Source: an uncultured Fibrobacter sp.
GTDB taxonomy: Bacteria; Fibrobacterota; Fibrobacteria; Fibrobacterales; Fibrobacteraceae
Direction of reading: 5' to 3'
Assembly: GCA_946402415.1 (NCBI GenBank)
Contig: CAMIWK010000004.1
Coordinates: 1 to 50,692 of the forward strand
DNA length: 50,692 nucleotides
The translations under genes and the position numbers were made by a program. Each line of letters starts with the position of its first letter. Position 1 is the stretch's first letter. The notes beneath the pieces were generated by a model. That model was not told the origin of the DNA and did no database searches. It saw nothing but the letters and a program-made list of their open reading frames with translations. This document shows positions 14,363 to 50,692 of the stretch, in pieces.

Positions 14363-15171
14363 TTCGGTTACTCCTTGCGGTTGTTTTGTTTGTAATGTGG
14401 GGATGTTCCGAGGAACATGTCAAGGTGGATTATTCGAAGATCCGTTTCGAGGGCCGTCGCCCCATGAGGGTCTCCGTGGATTCTGCGACAACAAAGGGGA
14501 ACGGTTTTGTACGGGAGGTTGACTTGCGTTACGCCACCCAGTGGGGCGATACGCTGAATGTGTCCATTCTGGAATTCAAGGGCGATGTCTATGCGCTGGA
14601 TTACTATACCAACAGTGGACGTTTCCAGGGGGTCCACTCTATCCTTCGCGGGAAATACCTGGAGCAGAGCATACGTGCAGACTACCGTATCTTTGTTTTT
14701 CGGCACGACAGTTTCAGGCGTTATGAAAGGCGTACTCTGGAAAACTTTGTGCGGTCCATACCGGGGGTGAGAATCGGGTTCCCTCAAGAGTTCTTGAGCC
14801 TGCCCTTTGAGCACCGTGAAACGGGGCGCACTACGGTGCAAACCCGCAATTTCTTGGGAGTCAAGTCTTTTTTCCCTGTGCTGGAGCAGAGCTATTCCGA
14901 TGATAATCTGGTCTGGAACGTGGCCCGCAGTTGGGATCTGGTGGAAGAATCCCGCTATCTGGACTGGGTGACCCAGTTGAAACGGGTTGCCCCACGGAAT
15001 ATCGAGACCGATGACGACGTCTATTACTTCTCTGCTGGCGAAGGGGTTAGGGGAATGGCGACCCAGCTTGCCGGTGGGCGTGTGGTGGTGGTATGGGGCT
15101 ACATGGACTGGCCGGATTTGAACCAGAAGTTCCTGGTGGCCAGCGACCGGGTCTTTGAAGCACGTTATTAG
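14359..15171 (+). CDS. Hypothetical lipoprotein
   Basis: A 270-aa protein with a lipoprotein signal ending VMWGC (Cys16). Its start overlaps the previous stop as ATGA, so the two are probably translated together. The mature part is a mix of beta-rich segments with many aromatic and charged residues (DTLNVSILEFKGDVYALDYY, YYFSAGEGVRGMATQLAGGRVVVVWGY). No known domain is recognised. Its likely location is the periplasmic face of a membrane. Confidence 0.75.
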   Translation: MIRLLLAVVLFVMWGCSEEHVKVDYSKIRFEGRRPMRVSVDSATTKGNGFVREVDLRYATQWGDTLNVSILEFKGDVYALDYYTNSGRFQGVHSILRGKYLEQSIRADYRIFVFRHDSFRRYERRTLENFVRSIPGVRIGFPQEFLSLPFEHRETGRTTVQTRNFLGVKSFFPVLEQSYSDDNLVWNVARSWDLVEESRYLDWVTQLKRVAPRNIETDDDVYYFSAGEGVRGMATQLAGGRVVVVWGYMDWPDLNQKFLVASDRVFEARY

Positions 15172-16973: not shown

Positions 16974-17377
16974 GAAAAAAGGCTTGTGGGTGGCTTCGTT
17001 TTTTAATAACTAGGGAGGGTGAAACCCTCCCTAAGACCTACCTTGCACTTAATAATCCGGTTAGTTTGGGTCGTAATAATTCAGGCTAAGCGGATTATTT
17101 TCGTGGGCACCTTCGGTGCTATGAAAAAACTGCTTGGGGGGGGATGGAAATGGTGCCTTTTTGTATAAACTTGTTTGCATTTTTTTTCATTTGTACAACT
17201 ATTCCAATATGGACTACAAGAAACCGCCCCAAATGTGGTAAAAAGGGCTTTCCGCTTTGTAAACTTTAATTTACTGGGGGGGGGTATACGGTTTTTGCCC
17301 GATGAAGTTATTTTGTTCTTACCAAATTCTCACGACGGGAATTGTTTTTGCTGTAACACAGATAATCGCGAGGTTCT
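16974..17377. other. 404-base intergenic region upstream of the cellulase gene
   Basis: No convincing gene is seen here. A 69-aa frame at 17175-17384 lacks coding character. The region is AT-rich, with a nine-base-pair hairpin at 17012-17032, a small hairpin GCACC/GGTGC near 17107-17120 and two runs of eight to nine G (about 17137 and 17275). It must contain the promoter and leader of the cellulase gene at 17378, but no single site is clear. Confidence 0.5.
17012..17032. repeat. Perfect hairpin AGGGAGGGT/ACCCTCCCT
   Basis: Nine-base arms around a GAA loop, without a T-run, lie between the divergent serC and cellulase genes. It is either a regulatory stem-loop or a dispersed element. Confidence 0.5.
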
Positions 17378-46085: not shown

Positions 46086-46285
46086 AATAATTTGCATATC
46101 TATTATAAAGTAATCCACGTCAATTTTTCCATATTATCTATATTCTTCCGGCGTTAGATATGGTACACAATGGTATTCGTATTTTAATGCTCTTTTGCCA
46201 TAAATGCACCTCCTTTTGTTTAGAATTGACAAAAGCTGACAGGTCCTTTTTTATATATTTCTTTTTGGGTGTTTTTTGAGTTTTT

Positions 46286-47356
46286 ATGATAGGATTGTCT
46301 CTTTTTGCTAGTGCTGGCATTGCGGAAATGAATCTCCGTAAAATTGCCAAAATTGTTGTTGCGAATGAATTACTTCCCATTAGGTGCAAAATACACGAGT
46401 TTTGGCACCCTAATGCTGAAATGGTTTGTGGAAGCATTACCGAAGATGATGTCAAACAAAGCATTGTCAAAAAATCCATTGAAAAGGGTGTAGATTTTAT
46501 TCTGGCTACGCCACCTTGTCAAGGGGTCTCCTTGATTGGTAAAAATAAGCGCAATGCTCAGTTTTTGCAGGACCCGAGAAATTTTCTGATTTTTCATGCT
46601 CTTGAGGTTGTGGATAAGATAAAACCCAAAGTTGTTGTTATCGAAAATGTTGATCGTTTTGCGAAAATGTCCTTTCCCTATAGGGGAGGAATGTACTCTA
46701 TTGAAGAAATTCTGAAAATGAAGTACAAGGGCGTATACAATATTGACGCCCACATTTATAACGCTGCAGATTACGGTGTTCCGCAAGCAAGAAAAAGACT
46801 TATTATAGTCTTGTGGAAGGATGAATTCACCTTTAGTCATCCTAAGCCTATTGCAAGACATATAACCGTAGAAGAGGCCATTGGAGACCTTCCGTCGTTG
46901 GAATCTGGGGAATCTTCTCCGATCAAGAACCACTATGCAAGAGTCCACACTCCAGAGCATATTCGGCTTATGAGGCATACGCCTACAGGACAATCGGCTT
47001 TCCAAAATAAAGTCTATTATCCCAAAAAGCCAGATGGAACGAAAATTATTGGATACCCGTACACATACAAGCGCATTGACTGGAATAAACCGGCGCCAAC
47101 AATAACTATGCGCAGCGATACGGTGTCCTCAACTCATACGGTTCATCCCGGTCGACCGTTGGGGCGAGGCCTGTATAGCGATGCTCGTGTAATGACCTTA
47201 AGAGAATTGTTCATCCTTAGTTCCATAAACCCAGATATTGACTTGCCTGAATTTGCATCGGAAAGTCAAATTAGGCAGGTTATTGGAGAAGCTGTACCTC
47301 CGCTACTTATGGAAAGCGTTTGTAAGAAAATCAAAATCAAAGGGAAAAACAAATGA
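46286..47356 (+). CDS. DNA (cytosine-5) methyltransferase, first of two
   Basis: This transfers a methyl group from SAM to carbon 5 of cytosine within a specific DNA site. The 356-aa protein has motif I SLFASAGIAE, motif IV TPPCQG (nucleophile Cys78), motif VI VIENVDRF, motif VIII QARKRL, motif IX RVMTLRELF and motif X GEAVPPLL. The target-recognition region lies between motifs VIII and IX. It is a diverged paralogue of the next gene and overlaps it by four bases (ATGA). Base composition is distinctly AT-richer than the flanks, which suggests horizontal gain. It protects host DNA from the linked endonuclease. Confidence 0.95.
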   Translation: MIGLSLFASAGIAEMNLRKIAKIVVANELLPIRCKIHEFWHPNAEMVCGSITEDDVKQSIVKKSIEKGVDFILATPPCQGVSLIGKNKRNAQFLQDPRNFLIFHALEVVDKIKPKVVVIENVDRFAKMSFPYRGGMYSIEEILKMKYKGVYNIDAHIYNAADYGVPQARKRLIIVLWKDEFTFSHPKPIARHITVEEAIGDLPSLESGESSPIKNHYARVHTPEHIRLMRHTPTGQSAFQNKVYYPKKPDGTKIIGYPYTYKRIDWNKPAPTITMRSDTVSSTHTVHPGRPLGRGLYSDARVMTLRELFILSSINPDIDLPEFASESQIRQVIGEAVPPLLMESVCKKIKIKGKNK

Positions 47357-48402
47357 ACGGCGTATCCCTTTTTTGTAGTGCAGGAATTGCAGAAACATAT
47401 TTCAAAAGGAACGGTATAGATATTGTCGTTGCCTCGGAACTTTTGCAGAAAAGATGCGATATTCACTCCTGGCTGTACAAGAAGTGTCATACTATTTGTG
47501 GTGATATTACACAACAAGAAGTGTTTGACCAGGTAAAGAAAGAAACGGCCGAAAAAAAATGCAAGTTTTTATTAGCGACCCCTCCATGCCAAGGAATGAG
47601 CACCTTGGGAAAAAAGGAGTACGAGACGGATAAACGAAATTATCTGGTTTTTTACGTTCTGGACCTTATTGATTGCTCTGATTTCGATTACATCTTAATA
47701 GAAAATGTTCCGAAGTTTCTTCAGTTGTATTTTCCATATAAAAAAGGCTTGTTCAAATTAATCGACATTGTAAAAGACAAGTATGCAAAGAAATACAACA
47801 TTGATTCTTTTGTGTTGAATGCAAAGGATTATGGTGTTCCGCAAAGCAGGCCCCGAGGCTTTATTCGCATTTGGAAAAAGGGCTTGAATTGGAAATCCCC
47901 AGAAAAGAAAAAAGAAATCACCGTAAGAGAAGCCATCGGTAATCTGCCGTCTCTTGAAGCTGGCCAAGATAGTGGAATCAAGTGGCATTACGCAAAAAAA
48001 CATAATGAACGTGATATTGATGCCATGAAACATACGCCGGAAGGCAAATCGGCCCTGCAAAACCCGGTACATTTCCCCAAAAAGGCTAATGGTGAACGAA
48101 TGAAGGGGTTCCATAACACATTCAAAAGAATCAAGTGGGATGAACCTTGTCCGGCAAGGGCTATGCAAAGTGGGAATATGGGCGGGCACAACAACTGTCA
48201 CCCAGGTCGACCGTTGCCGGATGGTACGTATAGCGATGCCAGAGTACTGACTCTAAGAGAATTATTCATTGTTTCTTCTTTGCCTGCAGATTGGAATTTG
48301 CCCACGGAAGGATATACGGACAATTTTTATAGACAGATTGTTGGTGAAGCAATTCCGCCAAGATTTAGCGAAGCGATAATTAAAGGTATAGGGAAAAAGT
48401 AG
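47353..48402 (+). CDS. DNA (cytosine-5) methyltransferase, second of two
   Basis: A 349-aa paralogue of the preceding gene: motif I SLFCSAGIAE, motif IV TPPCQG (Cys79), motif VI IENVPKF, motif VIII QSRPRG, motif IX RVLTLRELF, motif X GEAIPPRF. The target-recognition parts differ from the first enzyme (APTIT is here CPARA), so the two probably read different strands or sequences. Two cytosine-5 enzymes next to one endonuclease fits an asymmetric site, with each enzyme modifying one strand, as described for the HgaI system. Translation is coupled to the first gene. Confidence 0.95.
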   Translation: MNGVSLFCSAGIAETYFKRNGIDIVVASELLQKRCDIHSWLYKKCHTICGDITQQEVFDQVKKETAEKKCKFLLATPPCQGMSTLGKKEYETDKRNYLVFYVLDLIDCSDFDYILIENVPKFLQLYFPYKKGLFKLIDIVKDKYAKKYNIDSFVLNAKDYGVPQSRPRGFIRIWKKGLNWKSPEKKKEITVREAIGNLPSLEAGQDSGIKWHYAKKHNERDIDAMKHTPEGKSALQNPVHFPKKANGERMKGFHNTFKRIKWDEPCPARAMQSGNMGGHNNCHPGRPLPDGTYSDARVLTLRELFIVSSLPADWNLPTEGYTDNFYRQIVGEAIPPRFSEAIIKGIGKK

Positions 48403-48445
48403 TTTTCTCATTTTTTTGTATATTACTCTTTAATAGAATATTATA

Positions 48446-48453
48446 GGGGGGGG
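48446..48453 (+). repeat. Run of eight G upstream of the endonuclease start
   Basis: A homopolymer of eight G in otherwise AT-rich DNA, three bases before the possible GTG start at 48456. It could act as a crude ribosome binding site, and its length could vary by slippage. Confidence 0.6.
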
Positions 48454-48455
48454 CC

Positions 48456-48605
48456 GTGATTGAATTGCAAAGGTCGATGGACCATAGGTGGATTATTGAC
48501 AAAAATGTCAATTCAAAGGACATTTTGCAAGATTTTGCTGAAATAGCAAAAGATTGTTCTAGGGGGGTTCAGCTTTACGGACATTGTTCGCAAGGCTTCC
48601 GCTAG
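48456..48605 (+). pseudogene. N-terminal fragment of the restriction endonuclease, cut off by a frameshift
   Basis: From GTG 48456 (or ATG 48477 after AAAGG) this frame reads DKNVNSKDILQDFAEIAKDC, then SRG, and soon hits TAG at 48603. The downstream frame reads back without a stop to 48547, and reads GFSFTDIVRKASARG just after the G6 run at 48562-48567. With five G instead of six the two would join as SRGFSFTDI, giving one endonuclease of about 505 aa. So the gene is broken, phase-varied, or misread at this homopolymer. Confidence 0.75.
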
Positions 48606-48687
48606 AGGGTCCTACCAGGGAAGAAAATCTGGTGAGGATGGAGCAAGAATCACGGTAGGTGTCCGTATTCTGCAAGCCTGTTATTAC

Positions 48688-49974
48688 ATGTTTGGCTATA
48701 CGTTCAATGTTGACAATGATGCAAACAGAAAAGTTTTTATGCCTTCGCCAATGACATTAGACTTGTTGTCAACAGATGATGAAATAGAAAAGGCCAAAAA
48801 TGTTCTTGTAAATTTGTTTTGCCTGCAATTTCCACATCCGTTTAGCTGGACTCCAAACTGTTTTGAACTGTACTATGGCAGGTTGATAGTAAAGCTGTTG
48901 TTGGATGAGCGAATAAATAAGAAGTTATACATTGATGAATGTATATGGTTTTTGCCATTCATAGAAAAGGTAACCCCAGCTAGTTATAAGCAATTGGTAG
49001 ATAGCATCTTAGAGTATAGGACATTGTCTTACGAAGAAAAAAAGAAGTTGTTCAGAAGTGTAGACAACTATCAGAATCTCTTCGCTAATGTATGTCATGA
49101 AGTCAATTATTATTTTCTTCGATTGTTCTCCAATTTTGGCGTATTTGACTTGAAAGAAGATAGGGCGCACAATGGCGGGCAACTATTTTCTTTCTTACAT
49201 TGCCGTCCATCGACATATCGAAATGATGCTTACCAATCGCGCAAAAACCATTCGGGTTATGTGACGTTGTCATCAGCTGTTGAAGAAAGTGCAAAAAGGC
49301 TAATCGACCGCTTTTCTGTTTTCGATAAGCCGACAAAAATGGATAATGATGAAATTTTATCAAAAAGAGATTGGCTCACTAGATTATACGAAATAGAACC
49401 TCTAGAGTACCTTAATGCCATAGAAACCAAGACCAGTAATAGAAGTGAAGTTATAAAGGTTGTAAACGAAATGATTCGAGCCTCTAAATATGGCAGCCGT
49501 GATGGCAAGGAGTTCGAAAACGCGTTGAAGCCTTTTATGGAGCTTTTCAGGGAAACGAGCAATGTCGAAATCATTTCTGGTAGTGGAAACACTGACTTGC
49601 TCTGTAGTATGGAAGACGCACATAGTAAAAGACACTATAAGATGAATGTGGATGCAAAGACAAGAAAGTCCGCATTAGAAGAAATCAATAGCAGAAGAAT
49701 TACGAAGCATTTGATAAAGCATGCGGCAAAATTCTGTGTTATCATAGCGCCTAAGTTTGCCCGAGGAGTAAATGATGACATTGGCGGTTATCAAATTGTG
49801 ACAATAAAGTCAGATGATCTTGGGGCTTATTGTACAAAAGAATGTATGAATTCTCGAGATGGTTATGCTGATTTTGAAGCAATTCAAGATATCATAACTC
49901 AAAATATGGGGAAAGATATTTCAGAGCAAGTCCGAAAGCTGACTGAAGAAAGATACGGCTTGACTGTTGTATAA
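48688..49974 (+). CDS. Type IIS-like restriction endonuclease (main frame, N-terminus out of frame)
   Basis: The 428 aa from ATG 48688 are the main body of a restriction endonuclease; coding sense continues upstream to the G6 run. The C-terminal third resembles the nuclease part of FokI/AlwI-type enzymes: GNTDLL with Asp303, then YKMNVDAKTRK with Asp322 and Lys324 (PD-(D/E)XK pattern), then RITKHL and KFCVIIAPKFARG. The N-terminal two thirds would carry DNA recognition. Cleavage at a distance from an asymmetric site is inferred from this and the two methyltransferases. The internal start lacks a ribosome binding site, so without a frameshift correction little active enzyme is expected. Confidence 0.82.
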   Translation: MFGYTFNVDNDANRKVFMPSPMTLDLLSTDDEIEKAKNVLVNLFCLQFPHPFSWTPNCFELYYGRLIVKLLLDERINKKLYIDECIWFLPFIEKVTPASYKQLVDSILEYRTLSYEEKKKLFRSVDNYQNLFANVCHEVNYYFLRLFSNFGVFDLKEDRAHNGGQLFSFLHCRPSTYRNDAYQSRKNHSGYVTLSSAVEESAKRLIDRFSVFDKPTKMDNDEILSKRDWLTRLYEIEPLEYLNAIETKTSNRSEVIKVVNEMIRASKYGSRDGKEFENALKPFMELFRETSNVEIISGSGNTDLLCSMEDAHSKRHYKMNVDAKTRKSALEEINSRRITKHLIKHAAKFCVIIAPKFARGVNDDIGGYQIVTIKSDDLGAYCTKECMNSRDGYADFEAIQDIITQNMGKDISEQVRKLTEERYGLTVV

Positions 49975-49985
49975 AAATGTAGGCT

Positions 49986-50692
49986 CTACTTTACATTCAC
50001 CCTTTGCAATTTGTTCCCCTGCCGCACGATATAGGCACCGGGATTTTTGAACGTTGCGCGAAGTTCAGCTTCGAGAACGTCGCGCTCGGCACTGGTGCCG
50101 TGCAGATGCTCGGTCTGCAAGCTCCCCAGGTAACGGCCCTGCATATCGAACACCAGGGCTGGGCCTGACGTTTTTGCGGTGAATTCGAAATGGGAAATGA
50201 TAGACTCCGTTTCGTGTTTGGAATGATTCGAGCTGCTGGATTGGGAGTTCGAATCAGATGATGCAATCGCACTGCTCGATTCAGCGACGGAATTAGAGGA
50301 TGTCGTGACTGAACTAGAGGATGTTATAACAGAACTAGAAGACGCCACGGAACTGCTGGAGGGCATGCCGTATTCAAATGCTCCTAAATCGGGCGCCTCG
50401 CCTGCATATGGGAAGCCTAAATCTTCGCCCTTGTCGATGGCGCGGCTCCCCGCCTTGAGTTTCAGAAAATCTACGTTAGGCAGGCTGCCGTCGGCATTGC
50501 GTGGGCCAAGCATTCCCGGAATTGTCGAGAGGTCTTCACCGGTCACAGTCATACTGGGGTCATCGAGGCTCACGAAGTCATCTTCCGTCAAGTCTAAATC
50601 AAGGTTCCAAGTATTGTGTTCACCCGCCGGGCAATCTACATAATGGTCGATGTTCTGGCTCGAAATCTTCTCCCAGCATTCCCCGATTTGCG
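49986..50692 (-). CDS. Pectate-lyase family 9-like secreted protein, C-terminal part (partial)
   Basis: The frame is open to the window edge, so the N-terminus is outside. The visible N-terminal part (NTWNLDLDLTEDDFVSLDD, GPRNADGSLPNVDFLKLKAG, SRAIDKGEDLGFPY, APDLGAFEYG) closely follows the last turns of right-handed beta-helix pectate lyases of family 9. A serine-rich linker of about 70 residues follows. The end, LVFDMQGRYLGSL through GAYIVRQGNKLQRVNVK, looks like a type IX secretion sorting domain. It probably degrades pectin or related polymers outside the cell. Confidence 0.85.
   Translation of the reverse strand, partial: QIGECWEKISSQNIDHYVDCPAGEHNTWNLDLDLTEDDFVSLDDPSMTVTGEDLSTIPGMLGPRNADGSLPNVDFLKLKAGSRAIDKGEDLGFPYAGEAPDLGAFEYGMPSSSSVASSSSVITSSSSVTTSSNSVAESSSAIASSDSNSQSSSSNHSKHETESIISHFEFTAKTSGPALVFDMQGRYLGSLQTEHLHGTSAERDVLEAELRATFKNPGAYIVRQGNKLQRVNVK

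What the first reader, a model, noticed from the sequence alone, without database searches (positions are those of the whole stretch)
48541..48690. Endonuclease gene split at a G6 run; five G would restore one frame
The frame starting at 48456 encodes protein-like sequence up to the G6 run and then ends at 48603. The downstream frame is coding-like from the G6 run onward. Removing one G joins them (SRGFSFTDI). This could be phase variation of restriction, a decayed endonuclease with surviving methyltransferases, programmed frameshifting, or a sequencing error.
Basis: seen in the sequence. Interest (0 to 1): 0.65.

Follow-up and report, generated by a model that had tools for sequence, protein, structure and literature searches.

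The report
Frameshifted restriction enzyme beside intact methyltransferases
In this Fibrobacter-group genome a DNA-cutting restriction enzyme gene carries one extra base in a short run of G, which most likely switches it off while its two protective methyltransferases stay intact; this is a common kind of event, and a deliberate on/off switch is possible but not shown.

Summary
The frame from GTG 48456 stops at 48603-48605. A second open frame (48547-49971) carries the rest of the protein. They change over at the G6 run 48562-48567. They are one gene: an intact homologue with the same M1-M2-R order (L003, Muribaculaceae MAG, 501 aa) matches both halves at 57% identity, and four more intact homologues share the N-terminus.

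The gene is the endonuclease of a two-methyltransferase, single-endonuclease Type II system on an accessory low-GC island. The nuclease domain is predicted to be FokI/BspD6I-like (Type IIS). The methyltransferases resemble those of LlaJI (GACGC).

The assembly is otherwise clean: 253 orthologues (99 kaa) gave no G/C-run frameshift, and 55 G6/C6 runs are crossed by open frames, so sequencing error is unlikely but not excluded. Homologue L003 has no slip site there, so programmed frameshifting is very unlikely. G6 is ordinary here (86 in 800 kb) and shorter than tracts usually linked to fast switching. I favour a recent, ordinary inactivating insertion (R-off, M-on). A rare G8 lies beside the start codon and longer tracts occur elsewhere, so phase variation stays open. 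Reads are needed.

The parts
46286..47356 (+). M1: intact C5-cytosine DNA methyltransferase, 356 aa
   Evidence: Pfam DNA_methylase 1.6e-43; PADLOC MTase_II PDLC03384 1.5e-106; 38% identical to the first 5mC methyltransferase of the pNP40 LlaJI cassette
47353..48402 (+). M2: intact C5-cytosine DNA methyltransferase, 349 aa, overlaps M1 by 4 b
   Evidence: Pfam DNA_methylase 6e-45; PDLC03384 9.3e-115; 46% identical to M1
48446..48453 (+). G8 tract 2 b before the GTG start of R, in the Shine-Dalgarno position; one of 13 G/C tracts of 8 or more in the 1.91-Mb assembly
48456..48605 (+). R, N-terminal piece in frame 1: residues 1-37, then out of frame to TAG 48603-48605
   Evidence: 57% identity to residues 1-37 of L003, E 5e-13; Trp12 invariant in six homologues
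48562..48567 (+). G6 run where the reading frame changes
48568..49974 (+). R, C-terminal piece in the other frame (open 48547-49971, stop 49972-49974): central region and predicted PD-(D/E)XK nuclease domain (Asp380, Asp399, Lys401 of the joined numbering)
   Evidence: PADLOC REase_II PDLC03533 3.2e-40; 57% to L003; Asp380 and Lys401 invariant; model of the homologue's nuclease domain matches BspD6I and FokI, Z 13
48688..48690 (+). First ATG of the downstream frame; it encodes conserved Met78 of the joined protein and is not a homologous start

Best explanation
This is an OFF allele of the endonuclease of a two-methyltransferase Type II (probably Type IIS, HgaI/LlaJI-like) restriction-modification operon. 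One extra base in a short G run at codon 37 shifts the frame, and translation stops after 49 residues, before the predicted nuclease domain (shown from sequence). The first in-frame ATG downstream is 85 bases past that stop and would give a protein lacking about 77 conserved residues, so little or no active enzyme is expected (inferred). Both methyltransferases are intact, so the host DNA would stay methylated without restriction (inferred). The rest of the gene is undamaged, so the change is recent. The likely cause is an ordinary replication-slippage insertion that selection has not yet removed, not a dedicated switch.
For: One gene in all homologues: L003 intact with the same M1-M2-R order, four more intact homologues sharing the N-terminus. 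Downstream frame fully open, catalytic Asp380/Lys401 kept, codon-position bias kept. Assembly otherwise clean: 253 orthologues, 99,035 aa, no G/C-run frameshift, with the window gene recovered as positive control; 55 of 86 six-base G/C runs are spanned by a single long ORF. G6 is an ordinary run length here, below the >8 bp that PMC3936762 regards as likely to allow reactivation in H. pylori. The operon is an accessory island (38-44% GC versus about 57%; synteny with close relatives stops at about 46090).
Against: No reads or second strain carrying this operon could be seen, so an assembly error or a mixed population cannot be ruled out. The single-lesion state fits a phase-variable OFF allele equally well. 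The orthologue survey samples conserved genes from about 800 kb only.
Confidence: 0.55

Rival explanations
1. Sequencing, assembly or strain-mixture artefact: the organism's real gene is intact and the system is active.
For: The window comes from a 62%-complete, 188-contig MAG. The rest of the gene is flawless and one base makes the difference.
Against: No other G/C-run frameshift in 253 orthologues / 99 kaa (95% upper bound about 0.015 per gene of this size, my arithmetic from zero events); 55 six-base G/C runs are crossed by intact ORFs.
Confidence: 0.22
2. Phase variation: slippage in the G6 (coding), the G8 beside the start codon, or both, switches the endonuclease on and off while the methyltransferases stay on.
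For: The lesion is at a homopolymer. G8 at 48446-48453 is rare (13 tracts of 8 or more in 1.91 Mb). The same genome has a C14 tract in frame just after the ATG of a lipoprotein-like gene, and a congener has G8 and G10 tracts inside membrane-protein-like reading frames, so long tracts do occur in coding positions in this group. Phase-variable Type IIS endonucleases exist (HpyAII, PMC7494987).
Against: Six G is short, and such runs are common and stable in this genome. L003 has no run at this site. No length polymorphism could be observed.
Confidence: 0.15
3. Programmed +1 ribosomal frameshifting, or transcriptional slippage, at AGG GGG GTT makes a full-length enzyme at low level.
For: A G run is in principle slippery; local RNA folding is somewhat stronger than shuffled (z -2.3).
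Against: L003 has AAG AAA AAT GGA TTT in frame at the site and the other homologues read through in one frame. The predicted stem includes the G run itself rather than following it. There is no stop or evident slow codon in the A site.
Confidence: 0.03
4. The downstream ORF from ATG 48688 is a separate, shorter functional protein.
For: It is an open reading frame of 428 codons.
Against: None of the six aligned homologues starts there; the ATG is the conserved internal Met78, and the N-terminal residues including invariant Trp12 lie in the upstream frame.
Confidence: 0.02

Closest known systems
HgaI / MhoVI restriction-modification (GACGC/GCGTC; PMC12376442)
   Same: Two 5mC methyltransferases of about 350-360 aa and one endonuclease of about 500 aa; Type IIS class.
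   Different: Here the endonuclease frame is broken. No XRE gene was seen between 46118 and 49986.
LlaJI of plasmid pNP40 (GACGC; PMC1459862)
   Same: Two tandem 5mC methyltransferases, 37-39% identical to those here.
   Different: LlaJI uses an AAA ATPase plus a separate McrBC-like endonuclease subunit; its endonuclease subunit has no detectable similarity to the homologue of the one here.
HpyAII, phase-variable Type IIS endonuclease of H. pylori (PMC7494987)
   Same: Type IIS-like endonuclease with two methyltransferases, slippage-prone runs in the endonuclease gene.
   Different: HpyAII is an HNH nuclease with exocyclic methyltransferases and A runs; switching is not shown here.
FokI / BspD6I nuclease domains (1fok, 6qnz)
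   Same: Predicted fold of the homologue's C-terminal domain, Z 13.0-13.6 over 153-169 residues.
   Different: 8-12% sequence identity; whole-model confidence is low outside residues about 330-500.

Membership tests
Two-methyltransferase Type II restriction-modification system | Two adjacent intact DNA methyltransferase genes | tested here: met
   Pfam, NCBIfam and PADLOC hits, adjacent overlapping ORFs
Two-methyltransferase Type II restriction-modification system | Adjacent endonuclease gene of a known REase family | tested here: met
   PDLC03533 E 3.2e-40; same gene order in L003; but the frame is broken
Type IIS endonuclease (FokI-like) | PD-(D/E)XK cleavage domain of FokI/BspD6I type | tested here: met
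   Model of homologue L003: Z 13.0-13.6 to FokI and BspD6I, residues 323-501; predicted fold only, low confidence N-terminally
Type IIS endonuclease (FokI-like) | Cleavage outside an asymmetric recognition site | not testable with these tools
   Needs purified enzyme
HgaI/LlaJI specificity group (GACGC) | Methyltransferases homologous to those of a GACGC system | tested here: met
   37-39% identity over the full length to both methyltransferases of the LlaJI cassette
HgaI/LlaJI specificity group (GACGC) | Methylation of GACGC/GCGTC | not testable with these tools
   No methylation data
LlaJI system | McrBC-like endonuclease pair | tested here: not met
   Single REase gene; no similarity of homologue L003 to the pNP40 endonuclease subunit
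Phase-variable (contingency) gene | Long hypermutable repeat in or near the gene | tested here: inconclusive
   G6 in coding (ordinary here) and G8 at the start codon (rare here)
Phase-variable (contingency) gene | Repeat-length polymorphism in the population | not testable with these tools
   No reads; no other genome with this operon among those searched
Programmed frameshift gene | Conserved slippery site among homologues | tested here: not met
   L003 has AAGAAAAATGGATTT in frame at the site; other homologues are single open frames

The most novel reading that the evidence does not exclude
A Type IIS restriction endonuclease in a Fibrobacter-group bacterium that is phase variable through G tracts at its start codon (G8) and early coding region (G6), with methylation constant and only restriction switched. 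It would be one of several G/C-tract switches in this non-pathogenic lineage.
Probability: 0.12. Interest if true: 0.45.

Novelty: new member of a known kind. Interest (0 to 1): 0.22.

Why it matters
Broken endonucleases beside surviving methyltransferases show how restriction systems decay into solitary methylation. If the break were a reversible switch it would give gut or rumen Fibrobacter a way to open and close its barrier to phage and foreign DNA without self-damage, and would extend G-tract phase variation to a phylum where my paper search found no report of it.

Tried and rejected
Independent short protein from ATG 48688: rejected, no homologue starts there. Programmed frameshift: no slip site in L003; the RNA fold does not follow the run. 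Plasmid and phage records: no endonuclease match. Viral contigs: none. Pfam and NCBIfam do not name the endonuclease; sequence search of solved structures found nothing credible. A read-through translation with a four-letter word hit a second site in the gene each time, so the two frames were joined as protein only for alignment. Promoter and terminator scan: at or below shuffled expectation. Crude survey for other frame switches at G6 or longer runs in 800 kb: 13 candidates including this gene and the C14 tract; by eye the others look like shadow frames or ordinary gene starts, not tested by homology. Direct Foldseek search gave no match below E 0.001. Literature search for Fibrobacter phase variation gave nothing relevant among the titles and abstracts returned.

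Full report
What is there. The window lies in a Fibrobacter-group metagenome-assembled genome (G000, contig C4; 1.91 Mb, 188 contigs, 62% complete). At 46286-48402 two overlapping ORFs encode C5-cytosine DNA methyltransferases (Pfam E 1.6e-43 and 6e-45; PADLOC PDLC03384). 53 bases later a GTG-started frame (48456-48605, 49 aa) is followed by a second frame open from 48547 to 49971.

One gene, two frames. The downstream frame matches PADLOC REase_II PDLC03533 (E 3.2e-40). An intact homologue in a Muribaculaceae MAG (L003:5893-7398, 501 aa) follows the same two methyltransferase genes. Its residues 1-37 match the upstream frame up to the G run (57%, E 5e-13) and its remainder matches the downstream frame from 48568 (57%). 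Four further homologues (L004, L005, L006, L010) carry the same N-terminal region in one open frame, L005 being cut by its contig end. Trp12, in the upstream frame, is invariant, and the ATG at 48688 is the internal Met78. L003 reads AAG AAA AAT GGA TTT at the site, with no G run.

What the enzyme is. The predicted structure of L003 is confident only for about residues 330-500; that part matches the cleavage domains of BspD6I and FokI (Z 13.0-13.6, rmsd 3.1-3.6, 153-169 residues). Asp380 and Lys401 of the joined protein, in the motif GNTD...NVDAK, are invariant. The methyltransferases are 37-39% identical to those of LlaJI on pNP40, which recognises GACGC/GCGTC (PMC1459862), as do HgaI and MhoVI, which like this operon have two methyltransferases and one endonuclease (PMC12376442). 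LlaJI itself has a McrBC-like pair instead. A Type IIS enzyme of the GACGC group is thus a reasonable inference; the recognition site was not tested. The operon is an accessory island: its GC is 37-45% against about 57% upstream, none of the 168 genomes of the phylum searched carries a close relative, and synteny with the nearest congeners (88-90% DNA identity) stops at about 46090.

Is the frameshift real? In about 800 kb of this assembly, 253 orthologues of a congener (99,035 aa) were intact; the only frameshift candidate besides the positive control (this gene) had no homopolymer. Of 86 G/C runs of exactly six, 55 are crossed by one long ORF. Consensus errors at G runs are therefore rare here, which favours a real insertion but does not prove it.

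Mechanism. The C part has no stop in 468 codons, keeps its catalytic residues and its codon-position bias, so the lesion is recent. The product is expected to stop after 49 residues with no nearby restart. With both methyltransferases intact the cell would be M+ R- (inferred). A G6 run is common in this genome and shorter than the >8 bp homopolymers for which reactivation is called likely in H. pylori (PMC3936762), so an ordinary slippage insertion is the simplest cause.

What keeps phase variation open. A G8 tract lies two bases before the GTG start, in the Shine-Dalgarno position; tracts of eight or more number 13 in the assembly, three of them in this window. Another is a C14 run in frame just after the ATG of a 658-aa lipoprotein-like gene. 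A congener has G8 and G10 runs inside membrane-protein-like frames. These are candidate contingency loci but no length variation could be measured. Phase-variable Type IIS endonucleases are known (HpyAII, PMC7494987).

Verdict. Confirmed observation; the most likely explanation is an ordinary, recent loss-of-function allele of a restriction endonuclease (0.55), with artefact (0.22) and phase variation (0.15) as the main rivals.

Noticed in passing
   Followed up: partly
L016:15092-17068 (G000:C6), tract 15103-15116: C14 tract in frame a few codons after the ATG of a 658-aa Ser-rich lipoprotein-like gene: a strong candidate phase-variable surface gene.
   Followed up: partly
window 17276-17284; L113 (G000:C2, about 52482, reverse strand); L140 (G000:C137, about 3135): Three intergenic-looking G9 tracts share a similar context, TTTAC(A)(A)T-G9-TA, possibly a shared regulatory or mobile element.
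   Followed up: no
window 17136-17143 and 17276-17284: Two G tracts (8 and 9) 132 bases apart upstream of a secreted-protein-like ORF.
   Followed up: no
L136 (G000:C114), 1501 and 2042: Two G9 tracts 541 bases apart, one apparently within a coding region and one just before an ATG.
   Followed up: no
L073:10344 and L074:291 (G003:C1): G8 and G10 runs inside membrane-protein-like (acyltransferase-like by eye) frames of a congener: candidate phase-variable surface-modification genes.
   Followed up: no
window 46090-49986: The restriction-modification operon is a low-GC island; synteny with congeners ends at about 46090.
   Followed up: partly
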